From: Candidatus Latescibacter sp.
GTDB taxonomy: Bacteria; Latescibacterota; Latescibacteria; Latescibacterales; Latescibacteraceae
Direction of reading: 5' to 3'
Assembly (NCBI GenBank): GCA_030692375.1
Contig: JAUYCD010000264.1
Span: 1-42,856, forward strand
DNA: 42,856 nucleotides
Below the pieces are notes generated by a model. The model had not been told where the DNA came from. It worked only from the letters and a program-made list of their open reading frames with translations, and did no database searches. A program made the position numbers and the translations under genes. Shown one piece after another: positions 18,123-42,543 of the stretch (within the stretch, counting starts at the first letter, position 1; the number at the start of each line of letters is the position of its first letter).

Positions 18123-19166
18123 TTATTTTACAGCGAGATCTTCAATATGCTTCAAGATTCTAAAGAACTCGTGTGTATCAAGGAAGAAGTTTGGATAGGC
18201 ACGCCTCAATGATTCTATTGACTCGGTTGCAACTAGGACGGCTTGGTTTTGACTTCCTTTAACAATTTGTTCTTCTGCTTTAAGGTAATCAGCAGTCGCT
18301 ATATCAAAGCGATCTCTGCTATATGCCTGAAGCCTAATTGTTTTTGCTCCTGGGTCAAGGATTAGGAGATAATAAGTGCCTCGGCGTTCATCAGAGTGGA
18401 TCAAGTTTATGGCAGCACCAAATCCCGTCAGTTTACTTCTAACATTCAATTCTTGTGATTTTTTTGCAACATGTCGATATGTCTCAATATTTGACAACCC
18501 TTCATATCCAGGAACTGGATTTTGATTCTCAAGATGGGCAAAAGCAGAGCCGGTGAGAGAAAAGAATGTTAACCATTCATCAGGACCTTCGCTAGATTTG
18601 AGAGCATAGTTCAAAAAGATGCCCATTGTTTCGACAGCTGTTGCCCAAGCATGCTGCTGTCGTGTCCTTATTTGCAACTCAATGAGTAGACCATTGTAAT
18701 CAGTTACGGTCTTGTTGTTATAACGATATACAAGATGAATGCTTCTATAACCCGAAATCTTGGGTGAATCAATGTAGTTACGTTCGCTGATTAATTTGTG
18801 TTGGAAAGGAGTACTCTTATAATTTTCATATAGTTTCTGTACTTGGATTAGATTATCAACTACTGCTCTCAATCCACCAATGTCTTGCATCCTGGCAAGT
18901 TGCATATCAGTAAATCGACGAAGCTTCTCAACAATTGAAGGAATGCGTTTAAGCCTCTGAGCCACAAGAGATTTATTATCGATTGTTTTTAGCTTATGGC
19001 GCAGTGTTGCTTGGAATGTATTGATCGGATAATTATGGATTGCGCGCCAATTACCAAGTACATCTGCAGCCCATAACAGACTTTCATCCGAACTGGTTGT
19101 GTCCCTGAAAATATCTCCAGCCTTATTAACTTCGCCACGGGTATATTTTAATTTAACATTCTTCAT
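18123..19166 (-). CDS. RelA/SpoT-domain protein (small alarmone synthetase-like)
   Basis: 347 residues from the ATG at 19164-19166 with AGAGGA upstream. The nucleotidyl (pyrophospho)transferase core is at about residues 75-190: RMQDIGGLRAVV, then YIDSPKISGYRSIHLVY, then LLIELQIRTRQQHAWATAVE. These match the synthetase motifs that bind ATP and the acceptor nucleotide. There is no HD hydrolase, TGS or ACT domain. The C-terminal 150 residues are unassigned. Stand-alone members make (p)ppGpp or (pp)pApp, or modify tRNA when acting as toxins. It follows the TIR gene in the same direction and lies between attC-like sites, so it looks like an integron cassette. Its A/T content is higher than the surrounding core genes. 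Confidence 0.82.
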   Translation of the reverse strand: MKNVKLKYTRGEVNKAGDIFRDTTSSDESLLWAADVLGNWRAIHNYPINTFQATLRHKLKTIDNKSLVAQRLKRIPSIVEKLRRFTDMQLARMQDIGGLRAVVDNLIQVQKLYENYKSTPFQHKLISERNYIDSPKISGYRSIHLVYRYNNKTVTDYNGLLIELQIRTRQQHAWATAVETMGIFLNYALKSSEGPDEWLTFFSLTGSAFAHLENQNPVPGYEGLSNIETYRHVAKKSQELNVRSKLTGFGAAINLIHSDERRGTYYLLILDPGAKTIRLQAYSRDRFDIATADYLKAEEQIVKGSQNQAVLVATESIESLRRAYPNFFLDTHEFFRILKHIEDLAVK

Positions 19167-30685: not shown

Positions 30686-31279
30686 ATGGCATATCAAGCA
30701 CAAAAGCAGTCGAAACCCGACCATACCGCCTTGGATGTACTGCAGGAGTTCAAGCGGATGTTCGTAAACAGCCGTTCGTTGAGTGTCTATTTGCCCGAGA
30801 AATGCAATGGGGAATCGACGTTCGCGCCCGGCGAGTTCTACCGAGCCACCACTCCGTACTCCTACGTTCAACTCAAGGCCCCTCTCACTGAGAAGGTGCG
30901 GCAGGAGCATAACAGCATCGGGGCATGGATTAACGAAAACTTCTTGATTCGCCTCTGGGCAATTCTTGAGAGCCGGGGATTCACTAAGCCGATTCGAACC
31001 AACGTTCGAGGCACAGCCGAGGTCCAACTTCTCAAGGACCTTCGCCAGCACTTCGCGCATGGAACGGGCCTTTACAACGACAGAAAGTTGGAGCATCGCA
31101 ATCTGCGGCGCGACCTGCTAAAATCATTCCCTGTACCAGGAGATATCGACGGACTCCCTACTAACATCGACTACGTAATGGTTCCGATGTACGAGCGATG
31201 TCTCGAATACGTGCAGGACGTTCTGGCAGCTGAGGCATCGGAGGGTGACGGATCGCCTGCAATCATGAAGGCAGGATAG
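30686..31279 (+). CDS. HEPN-like protein of unknown function
   Basis: 197 residues, GGGGG a few bases before the ATG. The protein is mainly helical. DLRQHFAHGTG at residues 118-128 contains R120-x4-H125, the RNase motif of HEPN domains, placed after a helix (INENFLIRLWAILESRG) as in that fold. I cannot place it in a named family. HEPN proteins are often ribonuclease toxins or defence effectors. It stands alone, 104 bases before an HNH nuclease gene of much lower GC content, so the two may have arrived separately. A minus-strand frame over the same bases is a shadow. Confidence 0.6.
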   Translation: MAYQAQKQSKPDHTALDVLQEFKRMFVNSRSLSVYLPEKCNGESTFAPGEFYRATTPYSYVQLKAPLTEKVRQEHNSIGAWINENFLIRLWAILESRGFTKPIRTNVRGTAEVQLLKDLRQHFAHGTGLYNDRKLEHRNLRRDLLKSFPVPGDIDGLPTNIDYVMVPMYERCLEYVQDVLAAEASEGDGSPAIMKAG

Positions 31280-31383
31280 TAGCACCGAACAAGTGCTTTC
31301 AACCTATGCGTTCACGGTTGTCGCATACAGCAAGCGCACGACACGAGGAGTTTAGCTCAGTACATTAAATTAAGGAAAACATC

Positions 31384-32313
31384 ATGGAAAAAGCCCTATT
31401 TATAAACGGAGTTTATGAGGATGTCCTTGATGAAATTGTAAAATCCCAAGAAGCTAACCCTGGCAGGGTTTTTTACCTACAACCTTATTCAGAATCTTCG
31501 ATAAAACAACTTAGAAACGGATCAACCGAGCCGTATTTCCCATTACCTCTTTACATTTCAACAACCCGTCAACTCAATCAAATATGCTACTCAGCAGATA
31601 TCATTGGATGGGAAGACAAAAATGAACTATCGGCGAAAAGACTGGCATTCTTAAATGAACATATAAAAATATTTCAACCAAAAGAAGTCGAGATATATTT
31701 TGAAGTGAAGGAAAAAAAGTGCGTCAATTTAATCTCAATTAGAAACCTAACAAAATTTAGTAACCAACTGTCAACATCAAATCTAATAAAGGAGAGCGAT
31801 GGAGAACCACTTAAACCGCGGACTCGCGCAGGCAGTTGGAGTTACGTTTATGCTTTACCATTATTATCAATTGATAAAACTGTTGTTAAAAAAAGACTAG
31901 ACGAAGAACTGGAAAAATCTCTATCCATATCCTTAAAGGATGATGATGAAATAATAAAAAAACGTTTAGAAACTGCTCCTAAAATTCCAGAGAAAGTCCA
32001 AACCATATCATATGATTTTCGAAGAAACCCAGATGTAATTGCGGCGGTATTAAAAAGAGCTCACGGCAAATGTGAATTATGTAAATCTGATGCACCTTTT
32101 TTTAAGGCTTCAGATGGCACACCATATTTGGAAGTTCACCATTGGATCACATTATCTGAAGGAGGAGAGGACATTATTGAAAATGCTGGTGCACTATGCC
32201 CAAATTGTCATAAAAATGCGCATTTTGGGGCAAAACGAGACTTTATAAAATCTAACAAGGTGCTTGTATCCAATGTAAAAAGTCCCTCAACAGATGAACC
32301 CTGTTCGTACTAA
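31384..32313 (+). CDS. HNH endonuclease with unassigned N-terminal domain
   Basis: 309 residues, A/T-rich unlike the backbone genes. The C-terminal 90 residues are an HNH nuclease: zinc pair CELC, then YLEVHHWITLSEGGEDIIEN with the catalytic histidine pair, and ALCPNCHKNAHFG with the second CxxC. This form resembles McrA-like restriction enzymes. The N-terminal 150 residues (for example PLPLYISTTRQLNQICYSAD then IIGWEDK) may be a recognition domain; the fold is not identifiable by eye, and a PUA/EVE-like reader of modified bases is only a guess. AAGGAAAACATC precedes the ATG. Confidence 0.8.
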   Translation: MEKALFINGVYEDVLDEIVKSQEANPGRVFYLQPYSESSIKQLRNGSTEPYFPLPLYISTTRQLNQICYSADIIGWEDKNELSAKRLAFLNEHIKIFQPKEVEIYFEVKEKKCVNLISIRNLTKFSNQLSTSNLIKESDGEPLKPRTRAGSWSYVYALPLLSIDKTVVKKRLDEELEKSLSISLKDDDEIIKKRLETAPKIPEKVQTISYDFRRNPDVIAAVLKRAHGKCELCKSDAPFFKASDGTPYLEVHHWITLSEGGEDIIENAGALCPNCHKNAHFGAKRDFIKSNKVLVSNVKSPSTDEPCSY

Positions 32314-32591: not shown

Positions 32592-32852
32592 ATGGCAGAA
32601 ACGACCAAAAAAATACTGATATTCACCGATGAAACCCTCTGCAAGGGTGTGGACGGCTGCGGTATTTGCATTCATGTGTGTCCGAAAAAAGTGTTCGAGC
32701 GTTCGAGCCGTCTGACACCCAAGGGAATCCGGCCCCCGGAGCCGGTACGGGCCGAGGATTGCAACGGGTGCAAGCTGTGTATGATCTATTGTCCCGATCT
32801 GGCGATTGTAATAGAGAAAGAAGATAAATCTGAAGTGTTGACCGAGACATGA
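32592..32852 (+). CDS. korD: 2-oxoacid:ferredoxin oxidoreductase delta subunit (ferredoxin-like)
   Basis: 86 residues from the ATG at 32592, AGGA upstream. Two 4Fe-4S motifs: C57-x2-C60-x2-C63-x3-C67-P is canonical; the first is C17-x5-C23-x2-C26-x3-C30-P, with three extra residues after the first cysteine. It passes electrons from the TPP-containing KorAB core to free ferredoxin. The other three subunit genes begin 1.08 kb downstream, separated by a repeat array and a GxxExxY gene, whereas korD usually adjoins korA. Confidence 0.88.
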   Translation: MAETTKKILIFTDETLCKGVDGCGICIHVCPKKVFERSSRLTPKGIRPPEPVRAEDCNGCKLCMIYCPDLAIVIEKEDKSEVLTET

Positions 32853-33260
32853 TTTACATGATTTGCATGAAATAATGATATATATTCTAATCTTGTCAAT
32901 CTTGTTAATCCTGTCTAATTTCGGTATTTGAAAAAAAGCGTTGTTTAAAAAAAATTATCAGACATGATTTACATGATTTACATGATTTGCATGAAATAAT
33001 GATATATATTCTAAATCTTGTCAATCTTGTTAATCCTGTCTAATTTTGGTTTTTAAAAAGCGTCGTTAAAATATTCATTAGACATGATTTACATGATTTG
33101 CATGAAATAATGATATATATTCTAAATCTTGTCAATCTTGTTAATCCTGTCTAATTTTGGTATTGATAAAAAGCGTTGTTAAAAAAAATAATTGGACATG
33201 ATTTACAAGATTTACATATAAATGTTATATTCTGTCAATCTTGTCTGATATCGAGGTTTA
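32849..33260. repeat. Tandem array of about 115-base units (ACATGATTTACATGATTTGC type)
   Basis: Three full units and one partial unit begin at about 32849, 32963, 33084 and 33198. Each runs ACATGATTTACATG.., GAAATAATGATATATATTC, CTTGTCAATCTTGTTAATCC, TGTCTAATTT, then an A-rich segment with GCGTTGTTAAAA. The two parts ATTTACATGATT and AATCTTGTTAATC give the unit weak dyad symmetry. The last unit runs into the start of the GxxExxY gene. No spacers, so not a CRISPR. Confidence 0.8.
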
Positions 33261-33665
33261 TTGTTGGAAATCAATGAATTGACAAAGTGCGTCATCGGGT
33301 GCGCGTACAAGGTTCATAAAGAACTTGGCGCAGGTTTTCTTGAGAAGGTATATGAAAACGCCTTGAAAATAGAACTCGAGGAGTCCGGGGTCGATGTTGT
33401 TCAACAGTATCCAGTTGCCGTGAACTACCGAGGACGTATGATTGGCGACTTCTATGCCGATCTCTTGGTGGAAGGGAAAGTGATAATTGAATTGAAAGCT
33501 GTTCAGAAACTTGCGAAAGAACATGAAGTTCAACTGGTAAACTATCTCGCTGCCACAGGTATAGATAACGGTCTTCTCATTAACTTTGGTTCTTCTGTTG
33601 AAATAAAACGGAAGTTTAGAAAATATACTGAACAAGATTTACATGACAATAATAAATCCTGTTAA
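33261..33665 (+). CDS. GxxExxY protein embedded in the repeat array
   Basis: 134 residues from a TTG start. The family motif is present as G25-FL-E28-KV-Y31. Later motifs are VNYRGRMIGDFYADLLVEGK and VIIELKAVQKLAKEHEVQLV, in which the D, the E-x-K and following Q fit a PD-(D/E)xK nuclease-like core (the family is grouped with PDDEXK-3 in Pfam). Function is unknown. Both ends merge with flanking repeats: the last residues (EQDLHDNNKSC) are encoded by GATTTACATGA repeat sequence. No Shine-Dalgarno is evident. Confidence 0.85.
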   Translation: MLEINELTKCVIGCAYKVHKELGAGFLEKVYENALKIELEESGVDVVQQYPVAVNYRGRMIGDFYADLLVEGKVIIELKAVQKLAKEHEVQLVNYLAATGIDNGLLINFGSSVEIKRKFRKYTEQDLHDNNKSC

Positions 33666-33905
33666 TCTTGTTAATCCTGTCTAATATCAATTTTTAAACA
33701 GGCTTTTTTAAAACCAATCATCAGACATGATTTACAGATTTACATAAATAAAATATAAATTCTCAATTCTGTTAATCTTGTTAATCCTGTTAATCCTGTC
33801 TAATATCAATTTTTTAAACAGGCTTTTTTAAAACCAATCATCAGACATGATTTACAAGATTTACAAGATTAAAATAAATTAGAAATCATGTAAATATTTT
33901 TATCC
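33640..33905. repeat. Second part of the repeat array, after the GxxExxY gene
   Basis: Two units of about 115 bases with GTTAATCTTGTTAATCCTGT, TAATATCAATTTTT, AAACAGGCTTTTTTAAAACC and AATCATCAGACATGATTTAC. The first begins within the gene's final codons. Closely related to 32849-33260 but a distinct subtype (AAACAGGC instead of AAAGCGTTG). Confidence 0.75.
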
Positions 33906-33930
33906 CGTCATATCAACAAAGGATTATCCA

Positions 33931-35088
33931 TTGAAAAATGAGCGTGTTCTGACCGGAAGGCATTTCATGCAGGGCAACATCGCCTGCGCGGAGGGTGCGC
34001 TGGCAGCGGGCTGCAGTTTCATGGCAGGCTATCCCATCACTCCCGCCACCGAAATCGCCGAAAGGCTTGCAGTCCGTCTTCCCTCCCTTCGCGGGGATGA
34101 CGGTGTATTTATCCAGATGGAGGACGAGATCAGCTCCCTTGCCGCGGTTATCGGCGCCTCCTGGATGGGGAAAAAGGCCATGACTGCAACAAGCGGGCCG
34201 GGGCTTTCGCTTATGATGGAGCACATCGGATTCGCGATCGGCACCGAAACCCCGTGTGTCATTGTGGATGTCCAGCGGGGCGGGCCGACCACCGGCATCC
34301 CATCGGTCGAGCTTCAGGGCGACATGGTGCAGGCGCGGCGCGGCTCTCACGGCGAGTATCAGATCATCGCGGTGGCGCCTTCCTCCCCGCAGGAAATGTT
34401 CGACCATACCATCCTCGCTTTCAACCTGGCAGAGCTGTACCGTACCCCGGTGCTGGTCATGGCCGATGCGTTTGTTGGCCATATGCACGAGCGGGTCGAC
34501 ATTCCGGAACCGGAAACAATAGATATATCCAACAGAATCATTCCCGAACCGGGGTTCGATGCCGAGAAGGATCAGGGATTTCTCTCCGTGGATGTAGCGC
34601 CCATGCCGGTTTTCGGCCGCGGGTTCAAAAGCCATGTAACCTCATCATGCCATACCGAGACCGGTCAGAGGAATGTCACCGACGCCTACGCCCTCGATAA
34701 TTTCATCCGCAAGCTTTCCGGGAAAATCGAGAAACACCGGGATAAAATCGTGCGTGTGGAAGACCGAACCGAGGGCGCAGATATCGTAATTTTCGCTTAC
34801 GGCAGCATTCATCGTGTGGCGCTCGAAGCCGCAGAAAAAGCGCGCTCCGAGGGTTTGAACGTGGGTACATTCCGCCCGGTGACCGTGTGGCCCTTCCCGG
34901 ACAGGGAGATAGCCGAATTCTCACAGCGGGTGAAAGCCATCCTCGTCCTCGAAAACAATCTCGGACAGCTTCTCCCCTATGTGCAGGCGGCGGCGTCCTG
35001 CCCGGTTCATTTCCTCGAACCGGAAATTCTCGGCACCCTTCATGATGTGGACAGGGTGACAAAGAAGCTGAAGGAGGCGGCGAAATGA
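33931..35088 (+). CDS. korA: 2-oxoacid:ferredoxin oxidoreductase alpha subunit
   Basis: 385 residues from a TTG at 33931 with AAAGGA eight bases upstream; the nearby ATG is out of frame. N-terminal pyrimidine-binding domain: MAGYPITPATEIAERLA and TSGPGLSLMMEHIGFA; C-terminal transketolase-like domain with VVEDRTEGADIVIFAYGSIH-like strand order (residues about 270-290). In the four-subunit enzyme it completes the TPP site with KorB and oxidises a 2-oxoacid to its acyl-CoA with ferredoxin as acceptor. With sucCD downstream, 2-oxoglutarate is the likely substrate. Confidence 0.92.
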   Translation: MKNERVLTGRHFMQGNIACAEGALAAGCSFMAGYPITPATEIAERLAVRLPSLRGDDGVFIQMEDEISSLAAVIGASWMGKKAMTATSGPGLSLMMEHIGFAIGTETPCVIVDVQRGGPTTGIPSVELQGDMVQARRGSHGEYQIIAVAPSSPQEMFDHTILAFNLAELYRTPVLVMADAFVGHMHERVDIPEPETIDISNRIIPEPGFDAEKDQGFLSVDVAPMPVFGRGFKSHVTSSCHTETGQRNVTDAYALDNFIRKLSGKIEKHRDKIVRVEDRTEGADIVIFAYGSIHRVALEAAEKARSEGLNVGTFRPVTVWPFPDREIAEFSQRVKAILVLENNLGQLLPYVQAAASCPVHFLEPEILGTLHDVDRVTKKLKEAAK

Positions 35089-35924
35089 GTTCAACGCACC
35101 CTCTTTTCGAATATATACGCCCCTCGGCTTTGAAAACGGCCAACTGCCCCGGCTGTGGCAACGGTATTCTCGCCCAGGCCATCCTCCGCGCTATAGATGA
35201 AGAGGGGATCAGCATGGACGATTTCGTATTCGTATCCGGCATCGGGTGCGCCGCCTGGATTCCCAGCCCGTTCTTCCACGGAGATACGCTGCACACCACA
35301 CACGGCCGTCCCATAGCTTTTGCAACAGGTTTGAAACTCGCTGCCCCGGACCGCCGGGTCATGGTAATATCCGGCGACGGCGACCTTTTGGCGATTGGCG
35401 GGAATCATTTCATCCATGCCGCCCGCCGTAACATAGACATGGTGGTCATCTGTGTGAACAACGGCATCTACGGGATGACCGGCGGACAGGTGGCGCCCAC
35501 CACTCCGCTTGGCCTTAAAACGGTTACCTCCCCCTACGGGAATGTGGAGAACGAGTTCGATATTGCCGGGCTGGCAATAGCGGCGGGAGCGACGTATGCG
35601 GCCCGCTGGACGGTGTACCAGACCCTGCAAATTACGAAAGCCGTCCGAAAGGCGCTCAACCACAAGGGATTTTCCCTTCTCGAGATCCTCAGCCACTGCC
35701 CGGTGCATTACGGCAAGAAAGCGGGAATGAATTCGGTGAAGATGTTCGATGGCTTCAAGGAGCGTTCGGTTACGGTGGCTAAAGCCGCCGGAATGACCCC
35801 GGAGGAAAAGGCCGGAAAAATCATTGTGGGCGAGCTGCTCGACATCGAGAAACCTGTCCTCGATGTGGAGCTTGCCCGCCAGCGTGAAGAGCTGCGGAAA
35901 GGAGCCGCCGATGGCCAGAACTGA
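35085..35924 (+). CDS. korB: 2-oxoacid:ferredoxin oxidoreductase beta subunit (TPP-binding)
   Basis: 279 residues; its ATG overlaps the korA stop by four bases. CPGCGNGILAQAIL near residue 21 holds the cluster-ligating cysteines; the TPP motif is GDGDLLAIGGNHFIHAARRN followed after about ten residues by NNGIYGMTGGQ. It carries the TPP and one 4Fe-4S cluster that receives electrons before KorD. Length is normal for the KorB/VorB class. Confidence 0.93.
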   Translation: MSSTHPLFEYIRPSALKTANCPGCGNGILAQAILRAIDEEGISMDDFVFVSGIGCAAWIPSPFFHGDTLHTTHGRPIAFATGLKLAAPDRRVMVISGDGDLLAIGGNHFIHAARRNIDMVVICVNNGIYGMTGGQVAPTTPLGLKTVTSPYGNVENEFDIAGLAIAAGATYAARWTVYQTLQITKAVRKALNHKGFSLLEILSHCPVHYGKKAGMNSVKMFDGFKERSVTVAKAAGMTPEEKAGKIIVGELLDIEKPVLDVELARQREELRKGAADGQN

Positions 35925-36453
35925 GATTCGTTTCGCCGGATTCGGCGGCCAGGGAGTGGTGCTGGCCGGGGTGCTTCTCGGCGAGGCTGCGGTGATCCAC
36001 GACGGCAAGTATGCCATCCAGACCCAGACCTACGGCGCCGCGGCGCGCGGCGGTGCAGCCCGCTCCGATGTGATTATCAGCGAGGACCGTATCATCTATC
36101 CCCAGGTGACCGCGCCGGACATCATGGTGGCGTTCACCCTCGAGGCGATGAATAAGTACAAGAGCGAGATGAAAGAGGGCGCTCTTCTCATTGTTGACAG
36201 TTCCCTGTTCACTCCGCCGGACGGGCTCCCGTTCCGTGTCTACCGTTGTCCGGCCACCGGAATTGCGATGAATGAACTGGGAAAAGGAATTGTCGCCAAC
36301 ATGGTTATGCTCGGATTTCTCACCGCCCTGACAGGGATAGTGAGCGAGGATGCGATGACAGAAGCCATCCGCGCCAATGTACCGAAAGGTACGGAGGAAC
36401 TGAATCTGAAAGCTTTCCGGCGTGGAATGGAACTGGGTAAAGAAGCGAAGTAA
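35911..36453 (+). CDS. korC: 2-oxoacid:ferredoxin oxidoreductase gamma subunit
   Basis: 180 residues from the ATG at 35911, which follows AAAGGAG; it overlaps korB by 14 bases. The gamma-domain signature is RFAGFGGQGVVLAGVLLGEA then YGAAARGGAARSDVIIS. The domain lies over the CoA-binding side of the complex. The frame could open at 35824, but that stretch is korB coding sequence. Confidence 0.92.
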   Translation: MARTEIRFAGFGGQGVVLAGVLLGEAAVIHDGKYAIQTQTYGAAARGGAARSDVIISEDRIIYPQVTAPDIMVAFTLEAMNKYKSEMKEGALLIVDSSLFTPPDGLPFRVYRCPATGIAMNELGKGIVANMVMLGFLTALTGIVSEDAMTEAIRANVPKGTEELNLKAFRRGMELGKEAK

Positions 36454-36457
36454 AACC

Positions 36458-36552
36458 GTCTGAACCACAGATGGTCAGGATTGTACGGATCAACAGGAAA
36501 GAATTATTGTCCGGCATATCTTTTAATTCCTGATATCAACAGTTCAGACAAT
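36458..36552. repeat. GTCTGAACC inverted repeat, copy 3
   Basis: GTCTGAAC at 36458-36465 and GTTCAGAC at 36542-36549 enclose about 75 bases. It separates korC from the MNT/HEPN pair, starting five bases after the korC stop. Confidence 0.55.
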
Positions 36553-36591
36553 TTTAATAAAAATCTTTGTAATCTTGACAGGATTTCAATT

Positions 36592-36948
36592 ATGTATACC
36601 AATCGTGATTTTATAGAAATTTCCAAAATCATTCGATCTTTCATTCCCAGAACGAAAGAAATCATTCTCTTCGGAAGCTATGCCCGCGAGCAGGCAAAGG
36701 AGGAAAGTGATGCCGATATCGCGGTCATTGTGGAAAAGAAATTCGACCGTAAGGAAAAACTCCTGGCTCTGGGGAAGGCATGGAACGCACTGGCAAGACG
36801 AGGATACCATGTGGATATTGTAATAAAAACAGTGGATGAATTCGATATGGACAAGGATATACCGGTTACTCTCTCCCATACAATATATCATGAAGGAAAA
36901 TGCTTATGGAAAGCCAACGCCTCCTTGAAATCATCCGTCAATGGCTGA
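36592..36948 (+). CDS. MNT-type nucleotidyltransferase (antitoxin of an MNT/HEPN pair)
   Basis: 118 residues from the ATG at 36592 with AGGA upstream. Minimal nucleotidyltransferase motif LFGSYAREQAKEESDADIAV with G28-S29 and the metal-binding D40 and D42; the third carboxylate is D75 in HVDIVI. In characterised pairs this protein adds AMP to the HEPN toxin and inactivates it (type VII toxin-antitoxin). It overlaps the HEPN gene by 49 bases, a strong sign of coupled expression. Confidence 0.88.
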   Translation: MYTNRDFIEISKIIRSFIPRTKEIILFGSYAREQAKEESDADIAVIVEKKFDRKEKLLALGKAWNALARRGYHVDIVIKTVDEFDMDKDIPVTLSHTIYHEGKCLWKANASLKSSVNG

Positions 36949-37313
36949 TCAAGGCGGATCATGATCTTGAAATTGTTGAACGGGAAATGAGGTTTTCCGA
37001 TGAACCTCTTACAGATATTCTGTGTTTTCATTGCCAACAGGCTGTTGAGAAGTATCTGAAAACATACCTTATATTCAAACTCGTTAAACCTTCGAAAACA
37101 CATGATATCGCCGAGCTCATCGAGGAATGCAGAAAGCTTGATCCAGACTTTGAGAAGCTCTCCGATTTATCGTATATGACCGAGTATGCTGTCCAGCTTC
37201 GATATCCTGACGACTTTTACCAGCCTGAACTTGCAGAGATGAATAAAGCGTTTTCTGATGCCCTTAAGGCAAAACGGTTTGTTCTAGAGAAAATCAATGT
37301 AAAGATGAGGTAG
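36900..37313 (+). CDS. HEPN-domain protein (toxin partner of MNT)
   Basis: 137 residues (135 if started at the second ATG, 36906). All-helical HEPN of the type paired with MNT proteins: WLIKADHDLEIVEREM, FHCQQAVEKYLKTYLIFK, THDIAELIEECRK and AVQLRYPDDFYQPEL. The THDI and RYP motifs are standard for the family; a clear R-x4-6-H ribonuclease motif is not visible, so activity is uncertain. The pair lies between korC and sucC, all in one direction. Confidence 0.87.
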   Translation: MLMESQRLLEIIRQWLIKADHDLEIVEREMRFSDEPLTDILCFHCQQAVEKYLKTYLIFKLVKPSKTHDIAELIEECRKLDPDFEKLSDLSYMTEYAVQLRYPDDFYQPELAEMNKAFSDALKAKRFVLEKINVKMR

Positions 37314-37369
37314 CATCTCATCGGAAACAAGTACATAACCTATTCGGGGAGTTATAAACAACCACCGCC

Positions 37370-38515
37370 ATGAAACTCTACGAGCATGAAGCCGCCGATA
37401 TCTTCGCTCATCTCGGCATTCCCGTTCCGGACCGGATGACCGCCGTCTCGCCGGAGGAGGCCCGATCCGCCGCAGAAAAGATCGGCTGCCAGGTGGTGGT
37501 CAAAGCGCAGGTGCTTGCCGGGGGCCGCGGCCTGGCTGGAGGGGTGAAAACCGCCTCCACACCGGAAGAAGCGCAGGCCGCTGCGGAATCCATCCTCGGC
37601 TCCCGCATCCGTGGACTGACAGTCGAAAAGGTCCTGATCAGCCAAAAGATCGAGATCGCAAAGGAGCTTTACCTGGGCATCACGGTGGACGGAGACAAAG
37701 GACAGCCGATCGTGGTGACGAGCAGCGAGGGCGGCGTGAGCATCGAAGAAATCGCAAAGACATCCCCCTCGAAAATCGCCTCCCGGAATGTGGACATCAA
37801 CCGGGGGCTGCTCGCGTTCGAGGCGCGTAAACTCCTTGGCGGCGCAGGTTTCCCCGCCCGTCAGATACCTGCCGCCGCCGATGTGCTGGTGAAGCTCTAC
37901 CAGGTGTTCCGGCGGTACAATGCCCTGATTGCGGAGATCAATCCTCTGGCGGTCCGCCCGGATGGTTCGGTCACAGCGGTGGACACCAAGCTGGAAATAG
38001 ACGATTCCGCACTGTACCGCATGGACAACCGCCTTCCCGGCAACATCGAGCGCACCGGAAACCCGCTCGAGAAAAAAGGCCGCGAGATCGGAGTCACCTA
38101 TGTGGAGCTGGACGGCGATATCGGCCTCATTTCATCCGGCGCCGGGCTGGGCATGGCCACCATGGACATCATCGGGCGGAAACTGCGCCCCGCCAACTTC
38201 CTGGAAACCGGCGGCGGCATCACCGAAGACCTGCTCTACCGCATCATGGAGCTGATGATGATGAAACCGGGCCTCCGCGCTATCTTTATCAATCTCTACG
38301 GCGGCATCAACCCCATCCATGAGGGGGCCAAAGGCATCGTCCGCTACATCCGTGAGCACAATCTCTCCATCCCCATCATGGCCAAAGCCCTGGGGAACCG
38401 TCAGGAGGAAACCTGGGAAATCCTGCGCTCCGGCGGCGTCCACGTTGTAACTGAGACGGCGACTGAGAAGGCGGTGGAGAAGCTGTTCGAACTTGTAGGG
38501 AGCGTAAAAGAATAG
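37370..38515 (+). CDS. sucC: Succinyl-CoA ligase beta subunit-like (ADP/GDP-forming)
   Basis: 381 residues. ATP-grasp domain in the first 235 residues (VVVKAQVLAGGRGLAGGVK, EINPLAVRPDGSVTAVDTKL), then the CoA-ligase beta domain (VTYVELDGDIGLISSGAGLG, NFLETGGGITEDLLYRIM). The phosphate loop near the end reads LYGGINPIHEGAKGIV where most SucC have a GGI-RCD phrase, so the substrate may not be succinate. In the expected reaction an acyl-CoA, ADP and phosphate give the acid, CoA and ATP. It directly follows the MNT/HEPN pair by 56 bases. Its partner sucD is displaced by 1.9 kb. Confidence 0.85.
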   Translation: MKLYEHEAADIFAHLGIPVPDRMTAVSPEEARSAAEKIGCQVVVKAQVLAGGRGLAGGVKTASTPEEAQAAAESILGSRIRGLTVEKVLISQKIEIAKELYLGITVDGDKGQPIVVTSSEGGVSIEEIAKTSPSKIASRNVDINRGLLAFEARKLLGGAGFPARQIPAAADVLVKLYQVFRRYNALIAEINPLAVRPDGSVTAVDTKLEIDDSALYRMDNRLPGNIERTGNPLEKKGREIGVTYVELDGDIGLISSGAGLGMATMDIIGRKLRPANFLETGGGITEDLLYRIMELMMMKPGLRAIFINLYGGINPIHEGAKGIVRYIREHNLSIPIMAKALGNRQEETWEILRSGGVHVVTETATEKAVEKLFELVGSVKE

Positions 38516-38658
38516 TCCAAAGCCCAAAGGAAAAGATCAGTCGCAAAGGGGCAAAGGCACAGAGGAAAAGAAAGAAGTAAAGAAGCTGAAGAAACACTTT
38601 GCCGCGCCTTCACTTTGATACTATGTTACATTATTGATAGAAATGATAGGGTCTTAGT

Positions 38659-39753
38659 ATGAGCGTATTAAACCATATAACGTTAGAAAATTTCAAATCA
38701 ATCAAAAAACTTGACCTTGATTTGAAACCGTTAAATGTCTTTATCGGAGCTAATGGAGCGGGCAAATCAAATTTCGTCGGGGTGTTCAATTTCCTTAACG
38801 AACTAGTCGAAGGCAATCTTCAAACATATACGGGTACGTCCGGAGGAGCTAACAGCATCCTTTATTTCGGCATCAAAAGGTCGGACTCCCTCTCTTTTGA
38901 TCTCTCCCTGGATGATAACACGAAAGGGTATCGCTGTGTTTTGAAACCCACAGTACATGATTCTTTTATCATAGACGAAGAGTTATTCTGGATTATTGAT
39001 GAAGGCGGGCATAAAGAACATTCAATGTTTTTAGGTAATAACAATACTGAGTCTGCCATTCAGAAAACGCTCACAGATACCCAGTACGTGCCTTTCAAAG
39101 AAATCTGCCCTCTCCTTAAAAGCTGGAAAATCTATCACTTCCACGACACCACCAACAGTGCCGCAATTAAACAAACCAGTGATATTGAAAACAACCGCAT
39201 TCTTCTGCCAGACGGCGGCAATCTTGCGGCATTTCTGTACATGCTCTCGAAAAAATATCCGGTACATTTCGATAACATACAGGATGCCATTCGCATGGTT
39301 GCGCCTTTTTTTGACCGCTTTGTCCTTGAACCCTCTCAATTGAATGAAGACAAAATTCGGCTTGAGTGGAAACATAAAGGAACAAGCGATTATTTCAATG
39401 CTTCCTCACTCTCCGACGGCACTCTACGGTTCATGTGTCTTGCCACACTTCTTTTACAGCCAGCGCTGCCATCAATAATCCTGCTCGATGAACCCGAACT
39501 CGGCCTTCATCCTTATGCTGTCGCCGTTCTTGCAGGGCTCTTGCGGTCGGCTTCGAAGAATTCGCAGGTTATCATCGCCACGCAGTCGGTTACTCTGGTT
39601 AATCAATTCGAACCTGAAGATATTGTGGTGGTCGAGCGCGACAAAGAACAAAGCATATTCCGCCGTCTCGATAAATCGAATATTACCGAATGGCTTGAGG
39701 ATTATGGCCTCGGCGACCTTTGGGAGAAAAATATTCTGGGAGGACGCCCCTGA
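38659..39753 (+). CDS. AAA-family ATPase (OLD/RecF-like, SMC-type ABC fold)
   Basis: 364 residues. N-terminal ITLENFKSIKKLDLDLKPLN is the RecF/OLD opening; Walker A is GANGAGKSN at 30-38, signature LSDGT at 251-255, Walker B LLDEPELGLHP at 275-285, then a switch histidine-free ATQS at about 308. There is no nuclease or TOPRIM domain in this protein; that role probably belongs to the DUF4276 gene starting four bases later. It resembles the ATPase halves of PARIS and OLD-type phage defence systems. GC content is lower than the flanking suc genes. Confidence 0.85.
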   Translation: MSVLNHITLENFKSIKKLDLDLKPLNVFIGANGAGKSNFVGVFNFLNELVEGNLQTYTGTSGGANSILYFGIKRSDSLSFDLSLDDNTKGYRCVLKPTVHDSFIIDEELFWIIDEGGHKEHSMFLGNNNTESAIQKTLTDTQYVPFKEICPLLKSWKIYHFHDTTNSAAIKQTSDIENNRILLPDGGNLAAFLYMLSKKYPVHFDNIQDAIRMVAPFFDRFVLEPSQLNEDKIRLEWKHKGTSDYFNASSLSDGTLRFMCLATLLLQPALPSIILLDEPELGLHPYAVAVLAGLLRSASKNSQVIIATQSVTLVNQFEPEDIVVVERDKEQSIFRRLDKSNITEWLEDYGLGDLWEKNILGGRP

Positions 39754-39756
39754 ATC

Positions 39757-40410
39757 ATGAAAAAGGTGCTGATTCTCGTGGAAGGACAAACAGAAGAAGC
39801 TTTTGTTAAACGGGTTCTCGCTATTCATCTTGCGCCTTATGATATCGTGGTTAATCCTATAATATTGACAACAAAAATAGTCGTGAATGGTCCGGATTTT
39901 AAAGGTGGATCTTTATCATACAGAAAAGTAAAAAAAGAAGCTCAAAGATTGCTTGGAGACACAAGCACTCATCTGGTGACAACAATGCTTGATTTCTATG
40001 GTCTCAAAAACGATTTCCCTATGCGGGACAATTCTACCGGTAATCCTCTTGAAAAAGTTTCCAGAGTCGAGGCTGCGTTTAATCAAGATATAGATAATCC
40101 CCGCTTCTACAGTTATTTCTCACTTCATGAGTATGAGGGATTGCTGTTTTCTTCTCCATCTGATATTGCACGGATATTTAACGAACCCGTTAAAGAAAGT
40201 ATCCTCCGCCGAATAAGAAATTCTTTCCCGACCCCGGAAGACATTAATGATAATCCGGAAACCGTTCCTTCAAAGAGGATCTGCATGGAGTTTCCCCAAT
40301 ATGAAAAGGTTTTCCATGGCTCTGTAATCGCAGGCCGTATCGGGCTTGAAACCATGCGAAGAGAATGCCACCATTTTCATACATGGTTGAATCGAATTGA
40401 ACAATTATAG
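39757..40410 (+). CDS. DUF4276-family protein (TOPRIM-like partner of the ATPase)
   Basis: 217 residues. The start MKKVLILVEGQTEEAFVKRV has the TOPRIM-like glutamate E9 of RloB/DUF4276 proteins; further conserved parts are TTMLDFYGLKNDFP and HEYEGLLFSSP. Genes of this family are recurrently found directly after an AAA ATPase, as here. The combination suggests a two-protein nuclease or RNase system triggered by phage, comparable with AriAB of PARIS; this is inferred from gene arrangement. Confidence 0.82.
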   Translation: MKKVLILVEGQTEEAFVKRVLAIHLAPYDIVVNPIILTTKIVVNGPDFKGGSLSYRKVKKEAQRLLGDTSTHLVTTMLDFYGLKNDFPMRDNSTGNPLEKVSRVEAAFNQDIDNPRFYSYFSLHEYEGLLFSSPSDIARIFNEPVKESILRRIRNSFPTPEDINDNPETVPSKRICMEFPQYEKVFHGSVIAGRIGLETMRRECHHFHTWLNRIEQL

Positions 40411-40441
40411 ATAAAAACATAGATCGGAACAACATACCACC

Positions 40442-41320
40442 ATGTCTATATTGCTAAATCGAAAGACAAAGGTTCTCGTTCAGGGAATCACCGGGAAAAT
40501 CGGAAGCGTCCAGACCCGCTGGATGAAAGAATACGGCACTAATATCGTCTGCGGAGTAACTCCGGGCAAGGGCGGAGGCGAAATCGAAGGCGTTCCGGTT
40601 TTCAACTCGGTGGAGGAAGCAGTGCGTGGTACAGGCGCCGAGGCTTCGGTGTTCTTTGTACCGGCGGCGGGCGTGCTCGATGCATTCTTCGAAAATGCCG
40701 ATGCGGGTATCGGCCTGATTGTAGTTGTTCCGGAACATGTCCCCGTGCACGATGTGATGAAAATGCGCGCCTACGCCCAGGAGAACGGTGTGTTTGCCCT
40801 CGGACCCACCACCCCGGGCATTCTCACCCCCGGTGAGGCCAAGATGGGCATCATGCCCGGTTCCCTGTTCACTCCGGGCAGGTTCGGCATCATCTCACGG
40901 AGCGGAACCCTGGCCTATGAAATGGCCGGGATTCTCAGCGCCGCCGGGTACGGGCAAAGCACCGTGGTCGGCATGGGCGCGGACCCGGTCGTTCTCACCG
41001 CCATGACCGACATCCTGCAGCTTTTCGAGCGCGATCCCGAAACCGATGCTGTGGTAATCGTCGGCGAGGTGGGCGGAGTCCAGGAAGAAATGGCGGCGGA
41101 ATTCATTACAGAATGGATGACCAAACCTGTCGCCGCTTACATTGCCGGACGGTTCGCCCCGGAAGGCAAGCGCATGGGTCATGCCGGCGCCATCGTGCGC
41201 GGCTCTGCGGGTACATACGCCGGGAAATGCGCTGCGCTCGCAGAGGTGGGGGTGCGGGTGCTGGAAACGCCGATTGATGTGGTGGAGTGGGCAAAAACCC
41301 TGACACCTGGAGAGAAATGA
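40442..41320 (+). CDS. sucD: Succinyl-CoA ligase alpha subunit-like
   Basis: 292 residues. CoA-binding Rossmann domain (VQGITGKIGSVQTRWMKEYG), then GIMPGSLFTPGRFGIISRSG and the phosphorylated histidine in GHAGAIVRG. Two phrases depart from the usual: GPTTPGILTPGEAKMG (usually GPNCPG or GPNSPG) and GADPVVLTAMTDILQLFE (usually GGDP..G..F.D). Both line the CoA and acid pocket, in keeping with the odd loop in SucC. A strong ribosome site is lacking. It follows the ATPase/DUF4276 pair by 31 bases. Confidence 0.87.
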   Translation: MSILLNRKTKVLVQGITGKIGSVQTRWMKEYGTNIVCGVTPGKGGGEIEGVPVFNSVEEAVRGTGAEASVFFVPAAGVLDAFFENADAGIGLIVVVPEHVPVHDVMKMRAYAQENGVFALGPTTPGILTPGEAKMGIMPGSLFTPGRFGIISRSGTLAYEMAGILSAAGYGQSTVVGMGADPVVLTAMTDILQLFERDPETDAVVIVGEVGGVQEEMAAEFITEWMTKPVAAYIAGRFAPEGKRMGHAGAIVRGSAGTYAGKCAALAEVGVRVLETPIDVVEWAKTLTPGEK

Positions 41321-42543
41321 TGGATTTTCCTCAATTGGTAAAAATCCGGCAGCTTTTTAGCCGTGACTATATAGAAAATATAGAAGAAGAACTGGAACTC
41401 CGCCTGAACGCTTCCGGGATGCTCTCCCGGGTGAAACCCGGCATGCGGGTTGCAGTGACCGCCGGAAGCCGCGGCATCGACCGAATCCCCCGGATACTGA
41501 AAACGGTTATCGATCTTCTCATCGCCGCGGGCGCGAAACCGTTCATTGTCCCGGCCATGGGCTCCCACGGCGGCGGTACCGCCCGGGGCCAGACGGAGAT
41601 GCTCGAAAGCCTGGATATAACGGAAAAGAGCATAGGCGTTCCCGTTGTTTCCTCCATGGATACGGTGACACTGGGGAAAACATCTTCAGGCGCTCCTGTG
41701 TTCATGGATCGGAATGCCTATGACGCGGACGGTATTGTCGTAGTCAACAGGGTAAAGCTGCACACCGCCTACCATGGGTGGGTGGAAAGCGGCATCTGCA
41801 AGATGGTCGCAGTGGGTATGGGGAAGAAAAATGGCGCTGAGACCATGCACATGTACGGCCTGGGGGAGGTGATTACCGAGGCTTTCCGGATTGCGCGGGA
41901 TACTACGGGAAAGATTCTCTTCGGGGTGGCAATTCTTGAAAATGCCTTCGACCGGACCCTCGATTTTAAGATTTCCGCGCCGGAGGATTTTGAACAAACC
42001 GACAATGCTCTTCTGGAACGGTGCAGTTCGCTTATCCCCCGGATTCCTCTCCAATCTTTTGACATTCTCATTGTCGATGAAATGGGGAAAAATCTTTCCG
42101 GCACCGGCATGGACACCAATATCATCGGGTTCTGGCGCAGGTTCGGGGGCGAGAAAAATCCGGACTACAAAACGCTCATAGTCCGGGACCTCACTCCTGA
42201 AAGCCACGGAAACGCTATGGGAATCGGATTCGCCGATCTTATACCGCAGAAACTCTATGACAAGATCGATCTGAAAGCCACCTACACCAACGGTATCGCC
42301 TCCAATACCTGGTCCATCGTCCGTATTCCGATCACCCTCGAAAGCGACCGTGAATGCATCCTGACCGCACTGGAAAAGCTTCCGGCAGGTTCTGCCAGGG
42401 TCATCCGTATCCGAAACACCCTTTTTCTGGATGAACTCCAGGTATCCGAAAATCTTCTTCCCGCCCTCCGGGGAAAAAAAGGAATCGAAATCATCGGCAA
42501 GTCGGAGCCGATGCGATTCGACAGCGAAGGAAATCTAGTGTAG
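41317..42543 (+). CDS. LarA-like protein (DUF2088, nickel-pincer racemase family)
   Basis: 408 residues from ATGATG at 41317, overlapping the sucD stop; GGAGA precedes it. N-terminal DUF2088 region RVAVTAGSRGIDRIPRILKT and PAMGSHGGGTARGQTEMLES; the later RVKLHTAYHGWVESGICKMV has the histidine and lysine that in LarA bind the nickel-pincer nucleotide. Members racemise or epimerise 2-hydroxyacids. Coupling to sucD suggests work on an acid handled by this pathway; the substrate is unknown and no larB, larC or larE gene is in the window. Confidence 0.78.
   Translation: MMDFPQLVKIRQLFSRDYIENIEEELELRLNASGMLSRVKPGMRVAVTAGSRGIDRIPRILKTVIDLLIAAGAKPFIVPAMGSHGGGTARGQTEMLESLDITEKSIGVPVVSSMDTVTLGKTSSGAPVFMDRNAYDADGIVVVNRVKLHTAYHGWVESGICKMVAVGMGKKNGAETMHMYGLGEVITEAFRIARDTTGKILFGVAILENAFDRTLDFKISAPEDFEQTDNALLERCSSLIPRIPLQSFDILIVDEMGKNLSGTGMDTNIIGFWRRFGGEKNPDYKTLIVRDLTPESHGNAMGIGFADLIPQKLYDKIDLKATYTNGIASNTWSIVRIPITLESDRECILTALEKLPAGSARVIRIRNTLFLDELQVSENLLPALRGKKGIEIIGKSEPMRFDSEGNLV

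What the first reader, a model, noticed from the sequence alone, without database searches (positions are those of the whole stretch)
32592..42543. A kor-suc gene string interrupted by three different accessory modules
The order korD, korA, korB, korC, sucC, sucD and a LarA-like gene, all on one strand, is seen directly, with overlapping junctions where intact (korA/korB, korB/korC, sucD/LarA). It is broken by a GxxExxY gene in repeats, an MNT/HEPN pair and an AAA ATPase/DUF4276 pair. All three insertions sit between genes, keep the operon's direction, and bring genes of toxin or defence type. Repeated insertion into one essential-looking operon suggests either a preferred landing zone or selection for expression with a housekeeping transcript.
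Basis: partly seen in the sequence, partly recalled or inferred. Interest (0 to 1): 0.75.

Follow-up and report, generated by a model that had tools for sequence, protein, structure and literature searches.

The report
Defence modules interrupting a housekeeping operon
In this uncultured bacterium three different toxin or defence gene modules have slipped into the gaps of a central-metabolism operon; relatives show they are real, independent insertions, but other core operons in the same bacteria carry the same kind of insertion, so this operon is not a special landing site.

Summary
Window 32592-42543 carries korD, korA, korB, korC, sucC, sucD and a LarA-like gene on one strand. Between them sit a GxxExxY gene in repeats, an MNT/HEPN pair, and an AAA ATPase/DUF4276 pair matching PADLOC system HEC-01. 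The window is a contig of a Latescibacterota MAG. Two same-family genomes were compared. G002 lacks all three modules: two junctions are plain 124- and 46-bp spacers, while sucC|sucD holds an OmpH gene there and in G003. G003 instead has MNT-HepT-MNT-HicB-HicA between korA and korB. So 'interruption' is right for two sites; at the third, one occupant differs from another. The 'landing zone' reading is not supported. About 4% of gene junctions in this genome hold AT-rich accessory runs, so a seven-gene string with three occupied junctions is expected somewhere (simulated P about 0.75). The core gyrB|gyrA junction behaves the same way: about 100 bp in G003, DUF2442-MNT-HepT in G000, a methylase plus BglII-type endonuclease in G002. 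Keeping the operon's direction is uninformative, since 80% of neighbouring genes are co-directional. MNT/HEPN insertion in an operon was reported in Thermus in 2009. Best reading: tolerated, selfish insertion at non-overlapping spacers; co-transcription possible but untested.

The parts
32592..32852 (+). korD-like 4Fe-4S ferredoxin subunit
   Evidence: Fer4; best NCBIfam OGOR_delta, below its cut-off
32853..33930 (+). Module 1 region: 110-bp AT-rich repeats built of 9-mers (AATCYTGTN and inverted TTACATGA) around a GxxExxY gene
   Evidence: 127 matches of the 3-unit pattern in the genome, 0 in the reversed-pattern control; 22-bp identical word on both sides of the gene at 33195 and 33844
33261..33665 (+). 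GxxExxY / PDDEXK_3 gene
   Evidence: PF13366 E 5e-42, TIGR04256 E 5e-42
33931..35088 (+). korA, 2-oxoacid:acceptor oxidoreductase alpha subunit
   Evidence: POR_N; NF006412 over cut-off
35085..35924 (+). korB, beta (TPP) subunit
   Evidence: TPP_enzyme_C; best NCBIfam 2-oxoglutarate ferredoxin oxidoreductase beta, below cut-off
35911..36453 (+). korC, gamma subunit
   Evidence: POR; TIGR02175 over cut-off
36454..36588 (+). 5' edge of module 2, with a 41-bp dispersed intergenic repeat (36458-36498)
   Evidence: four further copies in about 680 kb of fetched genome sequence
36589..36948 (+). MNT nucleotidyltransferase (MntA-like), motif GSX10DXD present
   Evidence: PF01909; NF047752 MntA_antitoxin E 6e-14, below cut-off; motif
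36900..37313 (+). HEPN protein of the PF05168 class; no RX4-6H motif
   Evidence: PF05168 E 2e-22; motif absent
37370..38515 (+). sucC, succinyl-CoA ligase beta subunit
   Evidence: ATP-grasp_2, Ligase_CoA; NF001913 E 5e-106
38516..38658 (+). 5' edge of module 3, with a dispersed repeat (cgcaaaggggcaaaggcacagagg)
   Evidence: three further copies in fetched sequence
38659..39753 (+). AAA_21 ATPase, PADLOC HEC-01A; Walker A GANGAGKS, Walker B IILLDE
   Evidence: PDLC04175 E 6e-145; motifs
39757..40410 (+). DUF4276 protein, PADLOC HEC-01B
   Evidence: PF14103 E 7e-51; PDLC04188 E 1e-76
40442..41320 (+). sucD, succinyl-CoA ligase alpha subunit
   Evidence: NF004230 over cut-off
41287..42543 (+). 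LarA-like nickel-pincer-dependent isomerase, group 22
   Evidence: NF052515 over cut-off; Lar_N
30686..32313 (+). Two further AT-rich accessory ORFs upstream of korD (no-family ORF; HNH endonuclease)
   Evidence: PF01844 for the second; composition class

Best explanation
The kor-suc-lar string is a housekeeping operon of a Latescibacterota lineage whose non-overlapping intergenic spacers have independently received mobile toxin-antitoxin and defence modules. Insertion leaves every flanking gene intact, so it is tolerated wherever a spacer exists and is purged where genes overlap. The modules arrive with their own ribosome-binding sites or promoters, keep the operon readable because no terminator is introduced, and persist by addiction or anti-phage benefit. 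This goes on across the whole genome in this family; kor-suc is one of several hit operons, not a special target. Shown: gene identities, absence of the modules in relatives, the independent G003 insertion, the gyrB|gyrA parallel, and the occupancy background. Inferred: neutrality of insertion, read-through transcription, mobility, addiction or defence activity.
For: G002 lacks all three modules; korD|korA is 124 bp and korC|sucC 46 bp. G003 has MNT-HepT-MNT-HicB-HicA between korA and korB: the 3' end of korA (contig C386) runs into the MNT start that opens contig C126. The four affected junctions are those with spacers in f1; the overlapping korB|korC (-14 bp in all three f1 genomes) is never hit, and the distant family f8 has mostly very short spacers and no module found. 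Same pattern at gyrB|gyrA: about 100 bp in G003, DUF2442-MNT-HepT in G000, N6_N4 methylase plus BglII-type endonuclease in G002. Background occupancy 3.9% of junctions; P about 0.75 that some six junctions include at least three occupied. Other MNT loci lie next to dnaX and nadD in G000 and proA/hisI in G002. Precedent: MNT-HEPN in the lysine operon of T. thermophilus HB8 but not HB27 (PMC2701414).
Against: Counting the accessory run upstream of korD, four occupied of seven junctions is less expected (P about 0.10 genome-wide), and the same operon is hit again in G003, so a mild preference cannot be excluded. The background count uses a composition-based gene class seeded partly on this window, and the result changes with the threshold (2% to 9% occupancy). 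In the small synteny sample, no other conserved pair was seen to be interrupted by TA or defence genes in G000.
Confidence: 0.78

Rival explanations
1. The operon is a preferred landing zone: a sequence or DNA-structure feature of its spacers attracts insertion.
For: Three modules in G000 (four with the run before korD) and an independent cluster in G003 within one 6-kb core string.
Against: Four different junctions, four different module types, no shared edge sequence and no target duplication at modules 2 and 3. Dispersed repeats at the edges are ordinary: 46% of 100-200 bp and 67% of 200-400 bp spacers carry them. Clustering is within chance after look-elsewhere. gyrB|gyrA shows the same.
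Confidence: 0.1
2. Selection for expression: modules are kept inside housekeeping operons because the constitutive, essential transcript ensures steady toxin-antitoxin or defence expression and penalises deletion.
For: All modules are co-directional, with no plus-strand terminator-like site in any spacer. Most MNT/HEPN modules in G000 lie between co-directional genes, several beside core genes (gyrB/gyrA, dnaX, nadD).
Against: 80% of all neighbours and 67% of all triplets in this genome are co-directional, so co-orientation is no signal. AT-rich spacers also offer promoter-like matches. No expression data.
Confidence: 0.2
3. The modules are ancestral members of the operon that G002 and G003 lost.
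For: Two sister genomes are few; loss is easy.
Against: Distant Latescibacterota also lack them. Composition is distinct and AT-rich. G003 has a different set at a different junction.
Confidence: 0.05
4. The modules regulate or serve the KOR/SUC pathway (functional coupling).
For: Position only.
Against: Different, unrelated modules in each genome; none in G002; no regulator domains among the module genes.
Confidence: 0.03
5. Assembly or binning chimera placed foreign modules in the contig.
For: The window is a MAG contig with repeats, a known source of misjoins.
Against: Operon genes continue in the right order on both sides of each module; modules 2 and 3 have unique edges apart from short repeats; the same phenomenon appears in two other MAGs.
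Confidence: 0.03

Closest known systems
MNT-HEPN module inserted in the lysine biosynthesis operon of Thermus thermophilus HB8, absent in HB27 (Makarova et al. 2009, PMC2701414)
   Same: A MNT-HEPN pair lies inside a housekeeping operon and is absent from the syntenic locus of a relative.
   Different: Here three unrelated modules sit in one operon, and a fourth kind sits in the same operon of a sister genome.
HepT/MntA type VII toxin-antitoxin (Yao et al. 2020, PMC7641770)
   Same: Adjacent MNT with GSX10DXD followed by a HEPN gene.
   Different: The window's HEPN is PF05168 and lacks the RX4HXY motif (like the paper's Class II, not validated as TA); the G003 and gyrB|gyrA modules are PF01934 HepT-like, and in G003 the motif was found (RNRLIHGY).
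PADLOC HEC-01 (AAA ATPase plus DUF4276)
   Same: Both genes match their models strongly, adjacent.
   Different: No difference found; activity unknown. The genomic seat inside sucC-sucD is unusual.
GxxExxY (PDDEXK_3) proteins
   Same: TIGR04256 and PF13366 at E 5e-42.
   Different: Embedded in lineage-specific 110-bp repeats; similar repeats surround two of three G002 copies.

Membership tests
HepT/MntA type VII TA | MNT with GSX10DXD | tested here: met
   GSYAREQAKEESDAD
HepT/MntA type VII TA | HEPN of PF01934 class with RX4HXY | tested here: not met
   PF05168, no R-X4-6-H
HepT/MntA type VII TA | Toxicity neutralised by (poly)AMPylation | not testable with these tools
   needs expression assay
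HEC-01 (PADLOC) | Adjacent HEC-01A ATPase and HEC-01B gene | tested here: met
   E 6e-145 and 1e-76, 3-bp gap
HEC-01 (PADLOC) | Anti-phage activity | not testable with these tools
   needs phage assay
PARIS (AriA/AriB) | AriB-family second gene | tested here: not met
   DUF4276 protein hits only HEC-01B models in PADLOC; AriA model is weaker (E 6e-30) than HEC-01A
2-oxoglutarate:ferredoxin oxidoreductase (KorABCD) | Alpha, beta, gamma, delta subunit domains in one string | tested here: met
2-oxoglutarate:ferredoxin oxidoreductase (KorABCD) | 2-oxoglutarate specificity | tested here: inconclusive
   korB and korD best match 2-oxoglutarate models but below cut-off; adjacency to sucCD supports it
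LarA (lactate racemase) superfamily | LarA-type NPN enzyme | tested here: met
   NF052515 NPN isomerase group 22 over cut-off; no lactate racemase equivalog among the hits
Integrative element hot spot | Integrase or shared attachment site or target duplication | tested here: not met
   no recombinase among module genes; no target duplication at modules 2 and 3

The most novel reading that the evidence does not exclude
In this Latescibacterota family the spacers of core operons act as a distributed, rapidly exchanged defence reservoir: TA, R-M and ATPase systems are repeatedly placed inside essential transcripts instead of in defence islands, so that deletion or silencing costs the cell a housekeeping function.
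Probability: 0.15. Interest if true: 0.65.

Novelty: new member of a known kind. Interest (0 to 1): 0.32.

Why it matters
It gives two core operons (kor-suc and gyrB-gyrA) in one bacterial family where different toxin-antitoxin or restriction modules occupy different junctions in each genome. That is a clean comparative set for asking whether defence genes in housekeeping operons are tolerated passengers or selected riders. It also warns that operon membership alone should not be read as functional coupling.

Tried and rejected
Target-site duplications at modules 2 and 3: longest shared words are within shuffled expectation. Dispersed repeats at module edges as an insertion signature: rejected, because most longer spacers in this genome carry such repeats. 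GxxExxY tied to the 9-mer repeats in general: only 3 of 13 loci. Co-orientation as evidence: rejected, 80% background. Structure prediction of the DUF4276 protein: mean pLDDT 36, unusable; no PDB sequence relative. Synteny sample of G000 against G002 (0.72 and 0.96 Mb): only 23 linked pairs, too few for a rate; the enlarged gaps looked at held ordinary genes, judged by sequence only. A paper definition of HEC-01 was not found; no paper in the library names DUF4276. G001 (80% complete) gave no ortholog of korA or korB, so it is uninformative.

Full report
Observation. The ORF list and profile searches confirm korD, korA, korB, korC, sucC, sucD and a LarA-like gene (nickel-pincer isomerase group 22) on the plus strand. 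A GxxExxY gene in repeats, an MNT/HEPN pair and an AAA/DUF4276 pair lie at korD|korA, korC|sucC and sucC|sucD. GC drops from about 0.55-0.62 in the operon genes to 0.32-0.47 in the modules. Two more AT-rich ORFs (30686-32313, the second an HNH endonuclease) precede korD.

Provenance. The window is contig C264 of a 3.9-Mb MAG. G002 and G003 are in the same family; G003 matches Candidatus Latescibacterota bacterium Zod_Metabat.481, JAFGMP010000097.

Relatives. G002 reads korD-124 bp-korA-83 bp-korB/korC-46 bp-sucC-[OmpH]-sucD-lar. G003 reads korD-104 bp-korA-[MNT-HepT-MNT-HicB-HicA]-korB/korC-200 bp-sucC-[OmpH]-sucD-lar. The korA side lies on contig C386, which ends inside the same MNT start that opens contig C126. 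Six members of another Latescibacterota family have kor and suc genes next to each other in the order sucC-sucD-korD-korA-korB-korC (only korB-korC is visible on one short contig), mostly with spacers of a few bases. So the kor-suc linkage is old in the phylum and the modules are recent. At sucC|sucD the comparison is OmpH in two relatives against AAA/DUF4276 here; which state came first is open. G000 has OmpH homologues elsewhere.

Is the operon special? Three tests say not demonstrably. (a) AT-rich accessory runs occupy about 3.9% of junctions in 544 kb of other contigs of the same genome. With that rate, a string with at least three of six junctions occupied appears somewhere in 75% of simulated genomes; at least four of seven (counting the run before korD) in 10%. 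The class is composition-based and partly seeded on this window, so these are rough figures. (b) Co-orientation: 80% of neighbours and 67% of triplets are co-directional. (c) The core pair gyrB-gyrA has a spacer of about 100 bp in G003, DUF2442-MNT-HepT in G000, and an N6/N4 DNA methylase plus BglII-type endonuclease in G002. That locus was found by following MNT hits, so it shows recurrence, not a rate.

Where insertions sit. All four junctions hit in the family are ones with a spacer in a relative or another occupant; the overlapping korB|korC junction is never hit. This fits tolerance: an insertion into an overlap would damage a gene.

Module edges. Modules 2 and 3 show no target duplication. 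Each begins with a short dispersed repeat just after the preceding stop codon, but such repeats are present in 46-67% of the genome's 100-400 bp spacers. Module 1 lies in 110-bp repeats of a family with 127 matches in this genome, 41 in G002 and 7 (with mismatches) in G003. Two of three G002 GxxExxY genes lie in similar repeats, so for this module movement or amplification with the repeats is plausible but unproven.

Working model. MNT with GSX10DXD next to a PF05168 HEPN lacking RX4-6H resembles the unvalidated Class II type of PMC7641770; antitoxin/toxin action is inferred. AAA/DUF4276 is HEC-01 by PADLOC models; I infer an ATPase sensor with a partner effector, untested. No plus-strand terminator-like site lies in the spacers, so read-through is possible.

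Known precedent. Makarova et al. 2009 report an MNT-HEPN module inside the lysine biosynthesis operon of T. thermophilus HB8 and not HB27 (PMC2701414). The present case is a richer example of the same thing.

Noticed in passing
L281/L284 (G000:C213), L282/L286 (G002:C206), L283 (G003:C204): gyrB|gyrA junction: about 100 bp in G003, DUF2442-MNT-HepT in G000, DNA methylase plus BglII-type endonuclease in G002.
   Followed up: yes
L040:1-1557: G003 korA|korB carries a tandem TA cluster with two MNT genes sharing an identical start of about 70 nt, which breaks the assembly; the second MNT has only a remnant partner.
   Followed up: partly
L039:2734-3300, L040:4346-4918: An OmpH-family gene sits between sucC and sucD in both g3 genomes.
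   Followed up: partly
window 32847-33889 and 21806, 30361, 32428: Dispersed 9-mer-based repeat family (AATCNTGTN)n, 127 matches in G000, 41 in G002, 7 in G003, often in inverted pairs.
   Followed up: partly
window 36458-36498 and 38530-38570: Two other dispersed intergenic repeat families (TCTGAACCRCGGATGGTCAGGAT and GGCACAAAGGGGCAAAGGCACAGAGG).
   Followed up: partly
G000 genome: MNT genes are more numerous in G000 (23) than in G001-G003 (2, 5, 9), and PF05168 HEPN matches likewise (10 against 0, 0, 3).
   Followed up: no
window 18123-19166: AT-rich minus-strand ORF with a RelA/SpoT domain, another accessory-looking gene.
   Followed up: no
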